A stretch of DNA of 64,000 nucleotides from Methylobacterium radiodurans. Lineage in GTDB: Bacteria > Pseudomonadota > Alphaproteobacteria > Rhizobiales > Beijerinckiaceae. The number at the start of each line of letters is the position of its first letter. Position 1 is the first letter of the stretch. The notes under the pieces were generated by a model. It worked only from the letters and a program-made list of their open reading frames with translations, had not been told where the DNA came from and searched no databases. The DNA lies in assembly GCF_003173735.1 (NCBI RefSeq), contig NZ_CP029551.1:1727501-1791500 (forward strand), written 5' to 3'. Of this stretch, positions 15,814 to 45,806 are shown in pieces. Both the position numbers and the translations under genes were made by a program.

Positions 15814-15852
15814 TTGGTGGGCGCACTAGGGTTCGAACCTAGGACCCGCTGA
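15814..15852 (-). other. attachment site, left end of element 1
   Basis: The 39 bases from TTGGTGGGCGCACTAGGG to CCCGCTGA are identical to the 3' part of the intact tRNA-Lys gene at 45730-45768. Identity stops at the anticodon stem, the usual crossover limit of tRNA-targeting tyrosine integrases. Confidence 0.9.
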
Positions 15853-15988
15853 AGAGTACGTGGCGAAGCTTGCTCCAATCGCTAGAAAGGTCAGTAGGTT
15901 GGGCGAAAAACGCGTTTCGAAGCAGGAGGTTAATGTTGCCATTGGCTGACATTCGTGTACGCTGACGCTTGGTCGAAGTCCGCAGATG

Positions 15989-16031
15989 TGCGGACACAGT
16001 GCGGACACAGTGCGGACACAGTGCGGACACG
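15989..16031 (+). repeat. four 11-bp direct repeats, probable integrase arm sites
   Basis: TGCGGACACAG occurs at 15989, 16000 and 16011, with a fourth copy at 16022 differing in the last base. The period is one DNA turn. They lie between the att site and the integrase start and recur at the other end of the element, as expected for arm-type sites. Confidence 0.75.
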
Positions 16032-16046
16032 AAGGCGGCGGGTTGC

Positions 16047-16859
16047 ATGGTGCAACGGATAACTGAGACCTTCGTCAAGTCAGCACCCCGGCCTGAGACG
16101 GGTTCGCGGATTGTCTATGATGCCGATCTGAAAGGGTTCGGCCTGCGGCTGACGGCAGGGGGAGCCCGCGCGTTCATCCTCAACTATCGCTCCGCTGGTC
16201 GCGAGCGCCGCCTCACAATCGGCTCCTACCCGGAATGGTCGGCCACCGCCGCTCGGAAAGAAGCCGAGGCGTTAAAGCGCAAAATCGACATGGGGCACGA
16301 TCCCATGACCGCGAGGGATGAAGAGCGGGCCAGCCCAAACATCGCCGAGCTTTGCGACCTCTACATATTGCGCCATCTGCCAAAGAAACGCCCGGCCTCT
16401 CAGCGAGACGATCTGTCCGCCATCGAAAAGATCATCAAGCCGAAGCTCGGCACGACGAAGGTCGCTTTGCTGCGTCACTCGGATGTTGAGACGCTACACC
16501 GGGACATTTCAAAGCGTGCACCCTTTCGAGCGAACAGGGTCGTTGCTCTTCTGAGCAAGATGTTCAGCCTCGCCGTAAAGTGGGGCTACCGAACGGATAA
16601 CCCTGTGAAGGGCATCGATCGAAACCCCGAGAATTCCCGCTCACGATACCTGAGCCGGATCGAGCTTGGGCGTCTCGCTGACGCGCTCGACGGATACGCC
16701 AATCAGAACGTCGCATCGGCCATCCGTTTGCTCCTTTTCACTGGAGCCCGCCGCATGGAGGTGCTGAGTGCGCAGTGGGCGCACTTTGACTTAGAGGCGG
16801 GCGCCTGGACCAAGCCAAAGACGAATACGAAGCAAAAGCGCGAGCACCGGGTGCCATGA
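16047..16859 (+). pseudogene. P4-type tyrosine integrase, 3' truncated by an IS
   Basis: ATG 16047 begins VQRITETFVKSAPRPETGSR. The N-terminal DUF4102-like arm-binding domain follows (IVYDADLKGFGLRLTAGG, RRLTIGSYPEWSATAARKEA), then the core-binding domain and the start of the catalytic domain with LLLFTGARRMEVLSAQW, which contains the first catalytic arginine. The frame ends after about 270 residues at KREHRVP, exactly where the IS begins at 16857. The lysine hairpin beyond TKQKREHR, the HxxR box and the catalytic tyrosine are missing and not found beyond the IS, so the gene should be inactive. Confidence 0.9.
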
Positions 16860-17200
16860 CGTGACCGGCTGGCTTTGGACCGAGCTGATTGAGAGGATCA
16901 GCCAGGACCGAAGGAGTCGGACATGCGACGAGGACAGAAGACGAGCGCGGAGCAGGTGGTGCTGAAGCTGCGCCAGATCGAGGTGCAGACGGCGCAGGGC
17001 AAGAACTTAGCGCTAGCGTGCAAGGAGGTGACGTGACCGGCTGGCTTTGGACCGAGCTGATTGAGAGGATCAGCCAGGACCGAAGGAGTCGGACATGCGA
17101 CGAGGACAGAAGACGAGCGCGGAGCAGGTGGTGCTGAAGCTGCGCCAGATCGAGGTGCAGACGGCGCAGGGCAAGAACTTAGCGCTAGCGTGCAAGGAGG
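16857..17200 (+). repeat. exact 172-bp tandem duplication of the IS left end
   Basis: Positions 16857-17028 are repeated at 17029-17200. Each copy contains the terminal repeat, the ribosome site and the first 34 codons of orfA. The orfA copy in the first unit (ATG 16923) runs into the second terminal repeat and stops after LALACKEVT, so only the second copy is functional. Confidence 0.92.
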
Positions 17201-17376
17201 CAGAGATCTCTGAGCAAAGCTACTACCGCTGGCGCAAAGAGTACGGCGGCCTGCAGGTCGATCAGGCGCGGAAGATGAAGGATCTGGAGCGCGAGAACGC
17301 TCGGTTGCGGCGGCTTGTGGCCGACCTGTCCTTGGAGAAGCAGGTGTTGGCGGACGTCGCGGCGGGAAACTTGTAG
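17095..17376 (+). CDS. IS3-family transposase OrfA
   Basis: The 93-residue product has the expected helix-turn-helix (AEQVVLKLRQIEVQTAQGKN, then ACKEAEISEQSYYRWRKEYG) and a leucine-zipper-like C-terminus (KMKDLERENARLRRLVADLS). It binds the terminal repeats and multimerises. Its last codons contain the heptamer G-GGA-AAC at 17364-17370, two codons before the TAG, which would shift part of the ribosomes by -1 into orfB to make the OrfAB transposase. Confidence 0.9.
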   Translation: MRRGQKTSAEQVVLKLRQIEVQTAQGKNLALACKEAEISEQSYYRWRKEYGGLQVDQARKMKDLERENARLRRLVADLSLEKQVLADVAAGNL

Positions 17377-18236
17377 CCCCCGAGCGACGCCGGCAGGCGG
17401 TTGACGGCATCCAAGAGAAGTACGGCCTCTCGGAACGTCACGCCTGCCGGATCGTCGGCCAGCATCGGGGCACGCAGCGCTACGTGCCCACCGTGTTGGC
17501 CGACGAGGATGGGCTGACCCGCGCCATCGTCGCCCTGGCATCCGAGTACGGGCGCTATGGCTACCGCCGCGTCACCGCCCTGCTGCAGGCAGCGGGCTGG
17601 CAGGTGGGCAAAGATCGGGTTCAGCGTATCTGGCGTCGTGAGGGGCTGAAGGTCCCGCAGAAGCACCGCCCGCGCAGCCGCCTCTGGCTGAACGACGGGT
17701 CCTGCGTGCGCCTACGGCCGCTCCGCCGCAATCACGTCTGGAGCTTCGACTTCGTGCAGGCTCAGACCCACGACGGGCGGAGCTTGCGCATCCTGACGCT
17801 GATCGATGAGCACAGCCGGGCGTGCCTGGCGCTGAAGGTGGCTCGGCGCATCAACAGCCTGGGCGTGATCGAGGCGCTGGCCGACGCGATGTGCCTGCAC
17901 GGCATCCCGGAACACATCCGTTGCGACAATGGTCCGGAGATGATCGCGAAGGCATTGCGCAAGTGGGTCGCCAAGGCAGGCTGCCAGATCCAGTACATTG
18001 CGCCCGGCTCGCCGTGGGAGAACGGGTACTGTGAGAGCTTCAACGGCAAGCTGCGCGATGAGTGCCTACGGCAGGAAATCTTCTACTCATTGAGAGAAGC
18101 GCAGATCGTGATCGGGCTGTGGCAAAACACTTACAACCGCGTCCGGCCGCACTCGTCCCTGGGCTACCGGCCGCCCGCGCCTGTCAGCTTCCCTGATCTG
18201 GCCTTCCGGCTACCCATGGCAGCGGCCATGCAGTAG
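17364..18236 (+). CDS. IS3-family transposase OrfB part (DDE integrase core)
   Basis: The frame is open from the slippery heptamer at 17364 to TAG at 18236, reading KLVAPERRRQAVDGIQEKYG in its first part. A GTG at 17484 could also serve as an independent start. The rve-type core has the three catalytic acidic residues: Asp in WSFDFVQAQT, Asp in HIRCDNGPEM and Glu in ENGYCESFNGKLRDE. The C-terminus PHSSLGYRPPAPV is typical of IS3 transposases. No disruption is seen, so the IS may still be active if the extra left end does not interfere. Confidence 0.9.
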   Translation, partial: GKLVAPERRRQAVDGIQEKYGLSERHACRIVGQHRGTQRYVPTVLADEDGLTRAIVALASEYGRYGYRRVTALLQAAGWQVGKDRVQRIWRREGLKVPQKHRPRSRLWLNDGSCVRLRPLRRNHVWSFDFVQAQTHDGRSLRILTLIDEHSRACLALKVARRINSLGVIEALADAMCLHGIPEHIRCDNGPEMIAKALRKWVAKAGCQIQYIAPGSPWENGYCESFNGKLRDECLRQEIFYSLREAQIVIGLWQNTYNRVRPHSSLGYRPPAPVSFPDLAFRLPMAAAMQ

Positions 18237-18266
18237 CCTCTCAATTGGCTCGGTCCAAAATACCGG

Positions 18267-18545
18267 TCAGGTCAGTATGCCGCGCCTCTGACATTCAACC
18301 AGGGTTGTGCCACTCCCGACAAACGGATCTAGCACGGCCGTATCAGGTGGTATGGGCAGGATATCGAGGAGCGTACCTGGAATGTCCGGAATGAATTTGG
18401 CGGGATAAGGGTGAATGGCTTCAAGTTCGCTCAGCCGCTTTCGGCCAGCGAAGCTCCAATCAACCGCGTTAAGGGCTGCAGCTATATCAGCGACGACTGG
18501 CCCAGGCTCTTGGGTGCCTCGCACACGATTGTGCTGTGGTACCAT
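18267..18545 (-). pseudogene. DNA methyltransferase N-terminal fragment cut by the IS
   Basis: ATG 18545 opens a frame whose recognisable part is PYPAKFIPDIPGTLLDILPI and AVLDPFVGSGTTLVECQRRG. The DPFVGSGT motif is the SAM-binding motif I of N6-adenine/N4-cytosine methyltransferases, and the HPYPAKF stretch is common just before it. The match ends at 18275 where the IS starts; the last few codons are IS sequence. The catalytic DPPY-type motif IV and any cognate restriction gene are absent. Confidence 0.8.
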
Positions 18546-18654
18546 CAGCTCTGCCCTGCATTCTCGTTCGCGCTACTGGCTCGGATCAGACGTATCATAA
18601 CAAAACAACCTTAGCAGGTGCGTGATAGGGCGCCCAACTCATACCGCTGCACCC

Positions 18655-18886
18655 GCACCATGACATCTCCGCACGATGGTGCTGGCGCACCGATGCAATC
18701 TGACACCATCCCACCTTGGCGTTAACGCACCGTTGCGCCTTTGCACCTTGGCATCTCAGCACGAAGATGCGGCAGCACCACTGTGCCTCAGTACCACGGT
18801 ACCAAAGCACCAGAGTGCAGGCATTACCGTCCAAGCCGGTCAAAACGTACCGTAGCACCATGGTGCTTAAGTGCCCGCGTCCCGGA
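18655..18886. repeat. array of about 29 degenerate 8-bp units, consensus GYRCCNNN
   Basis: From 18655 the sequence can be cut into consecutive 8-mers that mostly begin G-C/T-A/G-C: for example GCACCGTT, GCGCCTTT, GCACCTTG at 18727-18750 and GCACCACT, GTGCCTCA, GTACCACG, GTACCAAA, GCACCAGA at 18775-18814. About 20 of 29 units fit the first four positions and the phase does not slip over 232 bp. Paired units form short palindromes such as GCACCATGGTGC. Frames on both strands stay open for long stretches as a by-product of the repeat; I do not regard it as coding. It sits 110 bp upstream of the methyltransferase start. Confidence 0.8.
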
Positions 18887-18908: not shown

Positions 18909-19493
18909 CTACTCTCCCATAGGAGGCAGCGGGCGGCCCATCGCGGCGCGCCACGCATCGACCACGTTCTGAAGGATGCACGATAGGGCACGTTCGGTCC
19001 CATCGTTCAGGGTCACAATGACCTGCTCCACCCCGCCGAACTTGCCTTCACCCCACGCCATTTTGCCGAAGCCGGTGGAACTGGTGACGGTAGCCGCGGC
19101 CGATGTGATCCGGCGGGGTACCCGTCGCCCTTGCGTTAGCACTGCGTGCTTGAAAGCATCAGCTACATCACCCAACAGGTGCACGTCGTCGGGCTGTGCG
19201 ATGCCCCGGAGCATCTTGCAGTGGTTCGCCTGGAGCCAATCACGTAGCCGATCTAAGCCGGCGAGGTTCGCCGGCATCCATGATGGGCGTGGCTGCTCCG
19301 CCCATGCGTAGTCGCCCATCTGATGGGCCTTGGTCGCAGCATTCCATGCAGCTTGCATCACATCATCGCGCGCCGCCTCAAGCTCATCTGGCGTGCCGTG
19401 TAACGCCGCTTGGGTGAGTGCGCCTTCGGCCGCAATGAAGCGGCGGAACTCGGGTGCTACCTGCTTGTCGAAGAACCGGGCTGCGTCTGTCAT
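18909..19493 (-). CDS. hypothetical protein
   Basis: ATG 19493 (TDAARFFDKQVAPEFRRFIA) gives 194 residues; the upstream extension to 19610 looks non-coding. The protein is soluble, with a helical first half rich in Trp (EQPRPSWMPANLAGLDRLRD) and a second half with a beta-like segment GVEQVIVTLNDGTERALSCI. I recognise no family. It is the second of two same-strand genes (19607-19924 first) that may form an operon in the mobile element. Confidence 0.6.
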   Translation of the reverse strand: MTDAARFFDKQVAPEFRRFIAAEGALTQAALHGTPDELEAARDDVMQAAWNAATKAHQMGDYAWAEQPRPSWMPANLAGLDRLRDWLQANHCKMLRGIAQPDDVHLLGDVADAFKHAVLTQGRRVPRRITSAAATVTSSTGFGKMAWGEGKFGGVEQVIVTLNDGTERALSCILQNVVDAWRAAMGRPLPPMGE

Positions 19494-19606
19494 CCGCGCT
19501 CCCCCCCTGCCTCGGAAGGTATGCCGTCCGGCGAGTTCCGCCGGGAAGTGCAACCGATTGCGCAGAGCGGGGCGGGTACTCGACCCGCCCTTCGTGTAGG
19601 CCGCCG

Positions 19607-19924
19607 TCACTTCTTGCTGAGGAGCGCCTTCGCGAGTGCCAGCTTGTCAGCAGGAACGACCTTTTGGGTCAGCAATGGCTCTTCAAACTCCGGCGGCATG
19701 ATGAACCAGGTCGGGAAGCCGCGGGCGCTCGGGTTGCCAGCAGCAGAGCCACCCTCGTCATTCCCGTTCCAACGAGCGGCCAGCCTCACCTTGTCATACC
19801 ACCGTCCGACAGCAAGGGACCAAGCACCCTCATCCGTGGTGCTGGGTCCTCCGTCATAGAGGACGTGGAGGAGTGTCCAGGCACCCCTGGGGGAGTGAAC
19901 GTCTTCAGCCTTGATGTAAGCCAT
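19607..19924 (-). CDS. hypothetical protein
   Basis: ATG 19924 (AYIKAEDVHSPRGAWTLLHV) after a GAGAG ribosome site gives 105 residues. Features include VGRWYDKVRLAARWNGNDEG and GFPTWFIMPPEFEEPLLTQK. I recognise no domain. Balanced composition and the ribosome site suggest a genuine gene of the mobile element. Its promoter faces the resolvase promoter across 242 bp. Confidence 0.6.
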   Translation of the reverse strand: MAYIKAEDVHSPRGAWTLLHVLYDGGPSTTDEGAWSLAVGRWYDKVRLAARWNGNDEGGSAAGNPSARGFPTWFIMPPEFEEPLLTQKVVPADKLALAKALLSKK

Positions 19925-20166: not shown

Positions 20167-20772
20167 ATGACCGTCCGTCCCCGCACCGCTGTCAGTGCCT
20201 CGGATGCAGCCCCGACCGGCCACCTGTACGGCTACGCCCGCGTCTCCACGACGGATCAAGACCTCTCCATCCAAGAGGATGCGCTACGGGCCGCCGGCTG
20301 TGAGATCGTGCGGGCCGAGAAGCGCAGCGGCACGAGCCGGGACGGCCGGACCGAGTTGGTTACGCTCCTGGATTTCATTCGGGCCGGTGACACGCTGATG
20401 GTCACCCGCGTTGACCGGCTCGCCCGCTCGATCGGAGACCTTCAGGACATTGTCCGCACTCTGAAGGCGAAGGGCGCTCACCTGAAGGCGACCGAACAGC
20501 CAATCGACACGAGCACCGCGGCCGGCAAGGCGTTCCTGGACATGCTCGGTGTGTTCGCCGAGTTCGAGACCAACATCCGCCGGGAACGCCAACTGGAGGG
20601 CATCGCCAAGGCGAAGGAGGAAGGGAAGTACAAGGGGCGCCCCCCATCGATCGATGCCACGCAGGTCCGGGCGCTCCAGGCGGAAGGGCTCGGCGCCAGT
20701 GCCATCGCTGCCAAGCTCGGGATCGGCCGGGCTTCCGTCTACCGGCTCCTTGGCGAGAAGGGGGGCGAGTGA
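20167..20772 (+). CDS. serine recombinase (resolvase/invertase family)
   Basis: The 201-residue product has an N-terminal catalytic domain beginning LYGYARVSTTDQDLSIQEDA, with the nucleophilic Ser in ARVST, and the active-site block DTLMVTRVDRLARSIGDLQD. The middle part is AGKAFLDMLGVFAEFETNIR with RRERQLEGIAKA. The C-terminus carries a helix-turn-helix (GASAIAAKLGIGRASVYRLL). It resembles Pin/TnpR resolvases of mobile elements and could resolve multimers or invert DNA. The next gene starts within its stop codon (TGATG), so the two are co-translated. Confidence 0.92.
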   Translation: MTVRPRTAVSASDAAPTGHLYGYARVSTTDQDLSIQEDALRAAGCEIVRAEKRSGTSRDGRTELVTLLDFIRAGDTLMVTRVDRLARSIGDLQDIVRTLKAKGAHLKATEQPIDTSTAAGKAFLDMLGVFAEFETNIRRERQLEGIAKAKEEGKYKGRPPSIDATQVRALQAEGLGASAIAAKLGIGRASVYRLLGEKGGE

Positions 20773-21828: not shown

Positions 21829-22074
21829 ATGCCCGAGTACGTGAACGTCAACTTCCGCATGCCGGCCACCATGAGGCGGGAAATTGAAACGATGGCAGCG
21901 ACCGATCCCGGGAACGCTCTCCGGGCCATAACGGTGTCTGATGTCATCCGGACAGCACTCGCGCACCACCTCGCCACCCACCGAGCGGCAATGGAGAGCG
22001 ACAATGTCCAACAACCTAGGTCGGCGCCACAGGTACCAGTACAGAAAAGGCTCCGGCAGTGCTTTCCTCGATAG
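21829..22074 (+). CDS. ribbon-helix-helix (CopG/Arc-like) DNA-binding protein
   Basis: ATG 21829 is preceded by TAGGAGG. The 81-residue product begins PEYVNVNFRMPATMRREIET, with an alternating hydrophobic beta strand (VNVNFRMP) followed by helix 1 (ATMRREIETMAA) and helix 2 (TVSDVIRTALAHHLATH), the RHH fold. RHH dimers bind tandem short sites in polymers, as MetJ does on 8-bp boxes and omega on 7-bp heptads. This is a candidate binder of the 8-bp array in the same element. Its 3' end overlaps the HNH gene. Confidence 0.75.
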   Translation: MPEYVNVNFRMPATMRREIETMAATDPGNALRAITVSDVIRTALAHHLATHRAAMESDNVQQPRSAPQVPVQKRLRQCFPR

Positions 22075-22642: not shown

Positions 22643-22688
22643 TTGGTGGGCGCACTAGGGTTCGAACCTAGGACCCGCTGATTAAGAG
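22643..22688 (-). other. attachment site between element 1 and element 2
   Basis: Forty-six bases, from TTGGTGGGCGC to GCTGATTAAGAG, are identical to the intact tRNA-Lys gene at 45730-45775. This copy extends through the anticodon (7 bases further than the left-hand site), so the two insertions used slightly different crossover or homology limits. Confidence 0.9.
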
Positions 22689-22760: not shown

Positions 22761-23231
22761 ATGTCAGCCGTTGCCTCACGCCACTCGTTCCTCGGCCTTC
22801 TGGCTGCAGCGTCCGCCGCCCGCATCGTCATTCCGGCCTTCACGCCACCGCGAGAACCCTGCGTGCGGGTCCGGCAGTTCGTGTCCTCCGTGGGGCTTGC
22901 TCTGCACCCGGCCCCGACCTTCATTGGGACGCTCACCGTCGTGGCGATCGGCGCGTGGGACGCGGCCCGATATCCCGTGACGCTCGATGACAGCGGGTTC
23001 GGTCCGCCCGGCCGGGCGGTCCAGTTCTACGACGTCGATCTGGCCGACCTCAACGCGGAGGTGCCGCGGGACTTCTGGCACCACGAGGCGAACTGGCGGC
23101 GCTACCCGAACGTGCACGCCCACGTCCGCGAGCAGCTCTACGGCGAGGATCCCGCCGTAATGCGCCGTCGGTTCGGGCAGGCGTGCGGCTGGTACGCCGA
23201 CGACGCCTCAATGACCCCGGGGAGGGTCTGA
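22761..23231 (+). CDS. hypothetical protein
   Basis: ATG 22761 gives 156 residues. The N-terminal part (SAVASRHSFLGLLAAASAAR) is unconvincing; the second half, VVAIGAWDAARYPVTLDDSG then PRDFWHHEANWRRYPNVHAH, looks coding. The true start may lie further downstream, or the 5' end may have been lost at the integration site. The next gene starts inside its stop codon (TGATG). No family is recognised. Confidence 0.5.
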   Translation: MSAVASRHSFLGLLAAASAARIVIPAFTPPREPCVRVRQFVSSVGLALHPAPTFIGTLTVVAIGAWDAARYPVTLDDSGFGPPGRAVQFYDVDLADLNAEVPRDFWHHEANWRRYPNVHAHVREQLYGEDPAVMRRRFGQACGWYADDASMTPGRV

Positions 23232-38456: not shown

Positions 38457-38664
38457 CGGGCGTCCTTTCGGGGTCGGCGGGGGTGATTCCGCGCAGCGCG
38501 AGCGCCGGCCGGCCGAAGCAGCGGCCGAGCGCCCGGCCGAGCGCCTGACCGTAGGGCTCGCCCGCGGCCTCGCTCGCGGGCTCGGCCGCGCACAGGCGCG
38601 CAAAGGCCGCGCGCAGGTCAACCTCGTCGGCCGCGAGCGGCGTGGGTGATGGAGCCTCCGACAT
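38446..38664 (-). CDS. small phage-associated hypothetical protein
   Basis: ATG 38664 gives 72 residues (SEAPSPTPLAADEVDLRAAF, then ARLCAAEPASEAAGEPYGQA). Alanine-rich, soluble. It lies 4 bp after the preceding phage gene. No family recognised. Confidence 0.5.
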   Translation of the reverse strand: MSEAPSPTPLAADEVDLRAAFARLCAAEPASEAAGEPYGQALGRALGRCFGRPALALRGITPADPERTPDAG

Positions 38665-45685: not shown

Positions 45686-45730
45686 TTTTTGGCTGTGTCT
45701 TCCTAACCGATTGTTTCGATTAGAGATATT

Positions 45731-45806
<76 letters not shown>

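What the first reader, a model, noticed from the sequence alone, without database searches (positions are those of the whole stretch)
18655..18886. Phase-locked array of about 29 degenerate 8-bp units (GYRCCNNN) in a mobile element
Cut into 8-mers from 18655, the sequence keeps G-pyrimidine-purine-C at the first positions in roughly two thirds of units over 232 bp, with no phase slip. Long unspaced arrays of 7-8 bp are the binding sites of polymerising ribbon-helix-helix proteins (MetJ on 8-bp met boxes, omega on 7-bp heptads), and element 1 encodes an RHH protein at 21829. MetJ arrays have only 2-5 boxes, so about 29 would be exceptional. It may be a centromere or mega-operator for the element or for the truncated methyltransferase. 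Neighbouring units form palindromes such as GCACCATGGTGC. I do not know a described array of this form.
Basis: partly seen in the sequence, partly recalled or inferred. Interest (0 to 1): 0.75.

Follow-up and report, generated by a model that had tools for sequence, protein, structure and literature searches.

The report
Orphan plasmid centromere array in chromosome
A 232-base stretch built from about 29 degenerate 8-base units looks like the centromere of a known type of plasmid partition system, stranded without its partner genes inside an element integrated in a bacterial chromosome.

Summary
The array is real. Lag-8 identity is 0.42, against 0.26±0.03 in shuffles (0 of 3000 reach it). GYRC occurs in 18 of 29 units in one phase and in 0-1 of 29 in the others.
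It is best explained as the centromere of a ParA / ribbon-helix-helix (type Ib) plasmid partition system. Its only plasmid match (81% over 81 bp) lies immediately upstream of parA on a Methylobacterium fujisawaense plasmid, where an RHH-like gene and a second array follow.
In the genus, 18 of 22 places with relatives of that RHH protein have a period-8 array that no shuffle reaches. None of the 30 best ParA-only places has one.
In the window the par genes are missing, and no cognate was found in the own genome. The array sits in a 6.8-kb element flanked by tRNA-Lys ends. It is fused to a methyltransferase module; the two plasmid relatives examined lack it. The RHH proposed at 21829 is no recognisable relative.
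It is either a relic or an orphan centromere able to interfere with plasmids, as SGI1's parS mimics do. No binding was tested.

The parts
18655..18886 (.). Array of 29 contiguous 8-bp units, consensus GYRCCNNN (self-complementary GYRC box plus 4-bp spacer); weak at 18823-18846
18656..18736 (+). Stretch homologous to the parA-proximal end of the array of M. fujisawaense plasmid NZ_CP155001 (81%); ten aligned units agree in boxes and spacers
18618..18655 (.). Junction between the array and a methyltransferase module; parA would be expected to begin here but is absent
18270..18545 (-). 5' remnant of an N6/N4 DNA methyltransferase gene (Pfam match just below cut-off), ending beside an insertion sequence; homologous to a M. 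indicum plasmid module that has no array
16874..18259 (+). Insertion sequence with HTH_Tnp_1 and rve transposase ORFs (IS3 type by recall), 23-bp inverted repeats and an internal 172-bp tandem duplication (16857-17200), lying between the truncated integrase and the truncated methyltransferase
15969..16859 (+). Truncated tyrosine integrase (Arm-DNA-bind_3 and Phage_int_M domains) of the element
15814..15852 (+). att-like repeat: 3' end of the tRNA-Lys gene, left end of element 1
22643..22681 (+). att-like repeat: right end of element 1 and left end of a second segment that reaches tRNA-Lys at 45731-45806
18909..19610 (-). ORF of unknown function next to the array; no match in the plasmids, and none outside the own genome in 111 genus genomes (195-aa part)
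20167..20769 (+). Serine resolvase; relatives on Methylobacterium plasmids (one 0.46 kb from a parA)

Best explanation
By descent the array is the centromere (parS/parH-like site) of a type Ib plasmid partition system, separated from its genes. [quoted passage not shown] Dimers of that protein would bind one GYRC box per 8 bp side by side, coat the array as a filament, repress the par promoter and stimulate ParA, which moves the DNA apart. In the window a plasmid-type array was joined, at the position where parA begins, to a methyltransferase module inside an integrated element; the par genes were lost. Shown here: the array, its homology to a parA-proximal plasmid array, the linkage of such arrays to parA-rhh operons in the genus, no detectable cognate in the own genome, and the junction. 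Inferred: protein binding, filament, promoter repression, partition function, and that the window copy is silent unless a plasmid supplies the proteins.
For: The only blastn match in 72,556 plasmid records is upstream of parA, where the first unit overlaps the parA start codon. The next gene has weak HicB, Arc and RHH_1 matches in its C-terminal half. The modelled relative has a low-confidence tail and two helices where RHH helices are expected; Foldseek lists Arc, ORF56, ParG and CopG (E 0.35-0.85, none below 0.001). A second array overlaps the end of that gene. Of 22 places with RHH relatives, 18 have arrays, 18 have ParA, 17 have both. Those 18 exceed all of 60 shuffles each, while 0 of the 30 best ParA-only places do. 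All 15 matches of the genus-type array model lie within 2 kb of such an RHH gene. Ten window units align with plasmid units, spacers included.
Against: No binding or partition was tested and no promoter was mapped. Only one plasmid was found with an array homologous to the window's; the other genus arrays have a different unit (GYRYTRYA), so their link to the window is by kind, not descent. The genus-type model was built from some of the same loci: 5 of the 8 genomes it hit had given it sequence, so those matches are expected, and only the lack of matches elsewhere is informative. The 30 ParA-only places are the top of a list of more than 150. L053 has ParA and RHH but no array. Of 14 par plasmid loci only 7 exceed their shuffles; the two with annotated ParG (L092, L094) do not. 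Period-8 peaks up to 5.6 also occur away from par genes (L090, L093). The Pfam RHH matches are below cut-off and the model is a monomer with mean pLDDT 65.6.
Confidence: 0.87

Rival explanations
1. Active orphan centromere: the array is kept because it captures the RHH and ParA of incoming plasmids, destabilising them by partition incompatibility or helping the element's circular form to segregate, as SGI1 does with IncC parS.
For: The array lies in an element flanked by tRNA-Lys ends. Its boxes are about as intact as those of the plasmid array (18 of 29 against 12 of 23 exact) and in phase over 232 bp. 57 relatives of the RHH protein exist in the large protein set. SGI1 is a precedent (abstract and passages).
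Against: Integrase and methyltransferase of the element are truncated. By the looser count the plasmid boxes are better kept (22 of 23 against 25 of 29). The window-type array is single in the own genome, and no second one was found in 111 genus or 397 order genomes, though that search uses strict filters. Intactness may only mean youth.
Confidence: 0.15
2. Mega-operator of the methyltransferase, bound by the element's own proposed RHH at 21829.
For: The array lies about 110 bp upstream of the methyltransferase start.
Against: Methyltransferase homology to the M. indicum plasmid ends at 18617, and neither plasmid relative examined has an array; the gene is cut off; the 21829 protein has no RHH match in Pfam or NCBIfam and no plasmid relative.
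Confidence: 0.04
3. Chance or coding periodicity.
For: Raw lag-8 identity of 0.406 occurs elsewhere in this GC-rich window.
Against: 0 of 3000 shuffles; the composition-corrected multi-lag score is 10.8 against at most 4.0 elsewhere; period 8 is not a codon multiple; three overlapping ORFs have no Pfam match; a matrix from the plasmid array alone finds it.
Confidence: 0.01

Closest known systems
TP228 parH centromere with ParF/ParG (type Ib)
   Same: Array of degenerate tetramer boxes with spacers beside a ParA-type gene and a small tail-plus-RHH protein (passages of PMC7308502, PMC5016525, PMC5389482); Foldseek lists ParG 1p94 at E 0.59
   Different: Box recalled as ACTC with 4-bp AT-rich spacers (the primary paper is not held); here the box is the self-complementary GYRC, spacers are not AT-rich, and in 13 of 22 relatives a signal lies on both sides of the operon
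pSM19035 parS heptads with omega and delta
   Same: Contiguous unspaced short repeats, one RHH dimer per repeat, at least four contiguous repeats needed to activate ParA (PMC9499535 passages)
   Different: 7-bp non-palindromic WATCACW, 7-10 repeats per site; here 8 bp, self-complementary box, 29 units
SGI1 parS mimics of IncC plasmids
   Same: Plasmid-type centromere on an integrative element, acting with the plasmid's ParA and ParB (PMC10954446 abstract and passages)
   Different: There two direct repeats with 22-bp inverted repeats for an IncC ParB, function shown; here a long RHH-type array, function untested
MetJ met boxes
   Same: 8-bp repeats bound by an RHH protein (recalled)
   Different: Consensus AGACGTCT (recalled) is not seen; arrays much shorter (recalled)

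Membership tests
Type Ib plasmid partition centromere | Array of short repeats, in the intact relatives next to the par operon | tested here: met
   M. fujisawaense plasmid and 18 of 22 genus places, 17 of them with ParA
Type Ib plasmid partition centromere | Small Walker ParA encoded beside the array | tested here: not met
   Present in the plasmid relative (NCBIfam ParA_partition E 2.2e-46, 158 bits, below its cut-off of 180); absent from the window, and none of 6 ParA matches of the own genome has an array. Hence 'orphan centromere by descent', not a complete system
Type Ib plasmid partition centromere | Small RHH centromere-binding protein with N-terminal tail | tested here: inconclusive
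   Plasmid relative: weak RHH matches and model; own genome: no match at E 0.01
Type Ib plasmid partition centromere | Bound by the RHH protein; gives stability and incompatibility | not testable with these tools
   Needs EMSA and plasmid stability assays
pSM19035 omega parS | 7-bp heptads WATCACW | tested here: not met
   Period is 8, lag 7 is at background 0.20; consensus GYRCCNNN
TP228 parH | ACTC boxes (recalled) | tested here: not met
   Consensus GYRC
MetJ operator | AGACGTCT boxes (recalled) | tested here: not met
   Unit composition differs
SGI1-like parS hijack | Plasmid-type centromere on an integrative element, without par genes | tested here: met
   att-like repeats and missing par genes
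SGI1-like parS hijack | Uses or disturbs the partition of a plasmid | not testable with these tools
   The held genome is one contig and no cognate par genes were found in it; an assay is needed

The most novel reading that the evidence does not exclude
A chromosomal integrative element carries a long RHH-type centromere array without par genes and uses it as a sponge or hook for the partition proteins of incoming plasmids, so excluding them or riding on them: a type Ib counterpart of the SGI1 parS trick, in a different lineage and with an unrelated centromere.
Probability: 0.15. Interest if true: 0.75.

Novelty: new variant of a known kind. Interest (0 to 1): 0.5.

Why it matters
It points to a set of type Ib centromeres in Methylobacterium with 8-bp units, long arrays, often on both sides of the operon, and two box types (GYRCC, GYRYTRYA) that go with two RHH subfamilies. 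That is a natural set for working out how ribbon-helix-helix centromere proteins choose their DNA. The orphan copy on an integrative element makes testable, outside SGI1, whether plasmid centromeres are taken over as anti-plasmid devices.

Tried and rejected
Rejected: chance; coding; methyltransferase operator by descent (two relatives examined of six plasmid records matched); the protein at 21829 as a recognisable relative of the plasmid RHH; a phage source (no match in 50,697 phage records).

Led nowhere or against: close RHH relatives were not found in genome contigs or viral contigs (17 and 116 pattern stretches, none confirmed). They were not found in 397 order genomes either, at the strict limit of 1e-8, where the tool itself warns that an empty answer shows nothing. 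Yet 57 relatives exist in the large protein set, whose contigs could not be fetched. The window-type model gave six weak places in six other genus genomes (L072-L077); none has a period-8 array. A sequence search of solved structures gave no significant match. Annotated ParG loci L092 and L094 have 3 and 6 ACTC/GAGT boxes against about 3 and 2 expected, with runs of 2 and 3 at 8-bp spacing, and no period-8 signal. Of 14 par plasmid loci, L003, L048, L088, L089, L090, L093 and L110 exceed their shuffles and L044-L047, L091, L092, L094 do not; the peak of L110 lies away from its parA (a lesser one is beside it), and L090 has its highest peak away from parA. Passages of the Paracoccus plasmid paper were not relevant. 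Literature searches; apart from SGI1, no orphan centromere on an integrative element was seen in their listings.

Full report
OBSERVATION. At 18655-18886 identity at lag 8 is 0.424 against 0.261±0.029 in dinucleotide shuffles (0 of 3000), with like peaks at 16, 24, 32 and 40. Raw lag-8 identity alone is not unique: GC-rich places at 38497 and 50969 reach 0.406. The composition-corrected score over four lags is 10.8 for the array and at most 4.0 elsewhere in the window. GYRC is exact in 18 of 29 units, in phase, and in 0-1 of 29 in the other phases; 25 of 29 units match at least 3 of 4 positions. Units 18823-18846 barely match. Tandem Repeats Finder hardly sees the array. The core GYRC is its own reverse complement.

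WHAT IT IS. A low-stringency blastn search of 72,556 plasmid records gave one match: 81% over 81 bp on a 62-kb M. fujisawaense plasmid. There an array of 23 units begins at the start codon of a small parA and runs upstream of it. parA is followed by a gene for a short protein whose C-terminal half weakly matches HicB, Arc and RHH_1. A second array of 13 units overlaps the end of that gene. An alignment of 20 relatives gave a model with a low-confidence tail and two helices where those of a ribbon-helix-helix are expected (mean pLDDT 65.6). Foldseek lists Arc, ORF56, ParG and CopG at E 0.35-0.85, with no match below 0.001. A matrix made from the plasmid array alone scores the window array 93 and nothing else on that strand above 16.5. 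Ten window units align with ten plasmid units in spacers as well as boxes, so the two are related by descent.

GENERALITY. Relatives of the RHH protein were found at 22 places in 21 of 111 genus genomes. Eighteen have period-8 arrays, 18 have ParA adjacent, 17 have both. L053 has ParA and RHH but no array; L066 has an array but no ParA match; L068-L070 have neither and are probably chance matches. Each of the 18 exceeds all of 60 shuffles of its own sequence; L053 and L068-L070 do not. In 13 of 22 a signal lies on both sides of the operon (matrix score at least 18 or period-8 score at least 4, my count). By contrast 0 of the 30 places with the best ParA matches (of more than 150 listed) exceed their shuffles. 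So the arrays go with the RHH type rather than with ParA similarity. A model of the genus-type array (unit GYRYTRYA) gave 15 matches in 8 of 111 genomes, all within 2 kb of such an RHH gene. Five of those 8 genomes had given sequence to the model, and it missed other array-bearing genomes, so what it adds is only that nothing was found elsewhere. Of 14 par plasmid loci looked at, 7 exceed their shuffles: besides L003, the M. indicum plasmid L089 (11.1), the M. radiotolerans, Microvirga and Stutzerimonas plasmids L088, L090 and L093 (about 6), the M. aquaticum plasmid L110, and a Xanthomonas plasmid with a different motif, L048. Two loci annotated as ParG (L092, L094) do not.

THE WINDOW COPY. 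Homology to the plasmid array ends at 18656, where parA should begin. Homology to a M. indicum plasmid methyltransferase module starts at 18617. So array and module were brought together in this lineage or an ancestor; the two plasmid relatives of the module that were examined (L004, L005) have no array. ParA and RHH are absent from the window. The own genome has no RHH match at E 0.01 and six ParA-family matches, none with an array. The held genome is one contig, so a plasmid missing from it cannot be excluded. The array lies in a 6.8-kb element bounded by copies of the tRNA-Lys 3' end at 15814-15852 and 22643-22681; a second segment follows up to the tRNA gene at 45731. The element's integrase and methyltransferase are both truncated, with an insertion sequence between them. 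Its resolvase has relatives on Methylobacterium plasmids, one of them 0.46 kb from a parA, and the region 22775-23147 in the second segment matches the same plasmid.

HOW IT WORKS. In known type Ib systems a small RHH protein coats the repeats and stimulates ParA. pSM19035 needs at least four contiguous heptads, one dimer each (PMC9499535, passages). TP228 ParG coats degenerate tetramer boxes and carries an arginine finger in its tail (PMC7308502 and PMC5389482, passages). The plasmid RHH family has an invariant tail arginine in its GARM motif, a candidate finger by analogy. By inference one dimer takes one 8-bp unit. The window array could only work if a plasmid supplies the proteins. SGI1 carries parS mimics that exploit IncC plasmids in this way (PMC10954446, abstract and passages). 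Whether this copy is a relic or a device is open. The truncated genes around it favour a relic. The box counts do not decide: exact boxes 18 of 29 against 12 of 23 on the plasmid, looser boxes 25 of 29 against 22 of 23.

VERDICT. The RHH-array idea is right in kind; the proposed partner and the operator idea are not supported. This is a new variant of a known kind (type Ib centromere), found as an orphan.

Noticed in passing
window 15814-15852, 22643-22681, 45730-45768: Three copies of the tRNA-Lys 3' end suggest two elements integrated in tandem at tRNA-Lys(CTT).
   Followed up: partly
window 16857-17200: Perfect 172-bp tandem duplication at the left end of the insertion sequence, where the integrase reading frame ends.
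   Followed up: partly
window 15988-16030: 11-bp tandem repeat (GTGCGGACACA, 3.9 perfect copies) at the start of the integrase reading frame.
   Followed up: no
L048 2366-2700: Xanthomonas campestris plasmid: dense GCATGC-type array with 4/8/12-bp periodicity directly downstream of parA and a small ORF; another box type in a par locus.
   Followed up: partly
L110 1331-1500: M. aquaticum plasmid pMaq22A_4p: a second period-8 signal (CATGACCT-like) about 7 kb away from its parA.
   Followed up: no
L046 and L047 about 2411-2530: Period-11 signal at the start of parA in M. extorquens p3META1 and pAMS5c (score 5.4): perhaps a different repeat length in a related par family.
   Followed up: no
L066: RHH gene with a period-8 array about 1 kb away but no adjacent ParA match, on contig C1 of genome G102 at about 4.42 Mb.
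   Followed up: no
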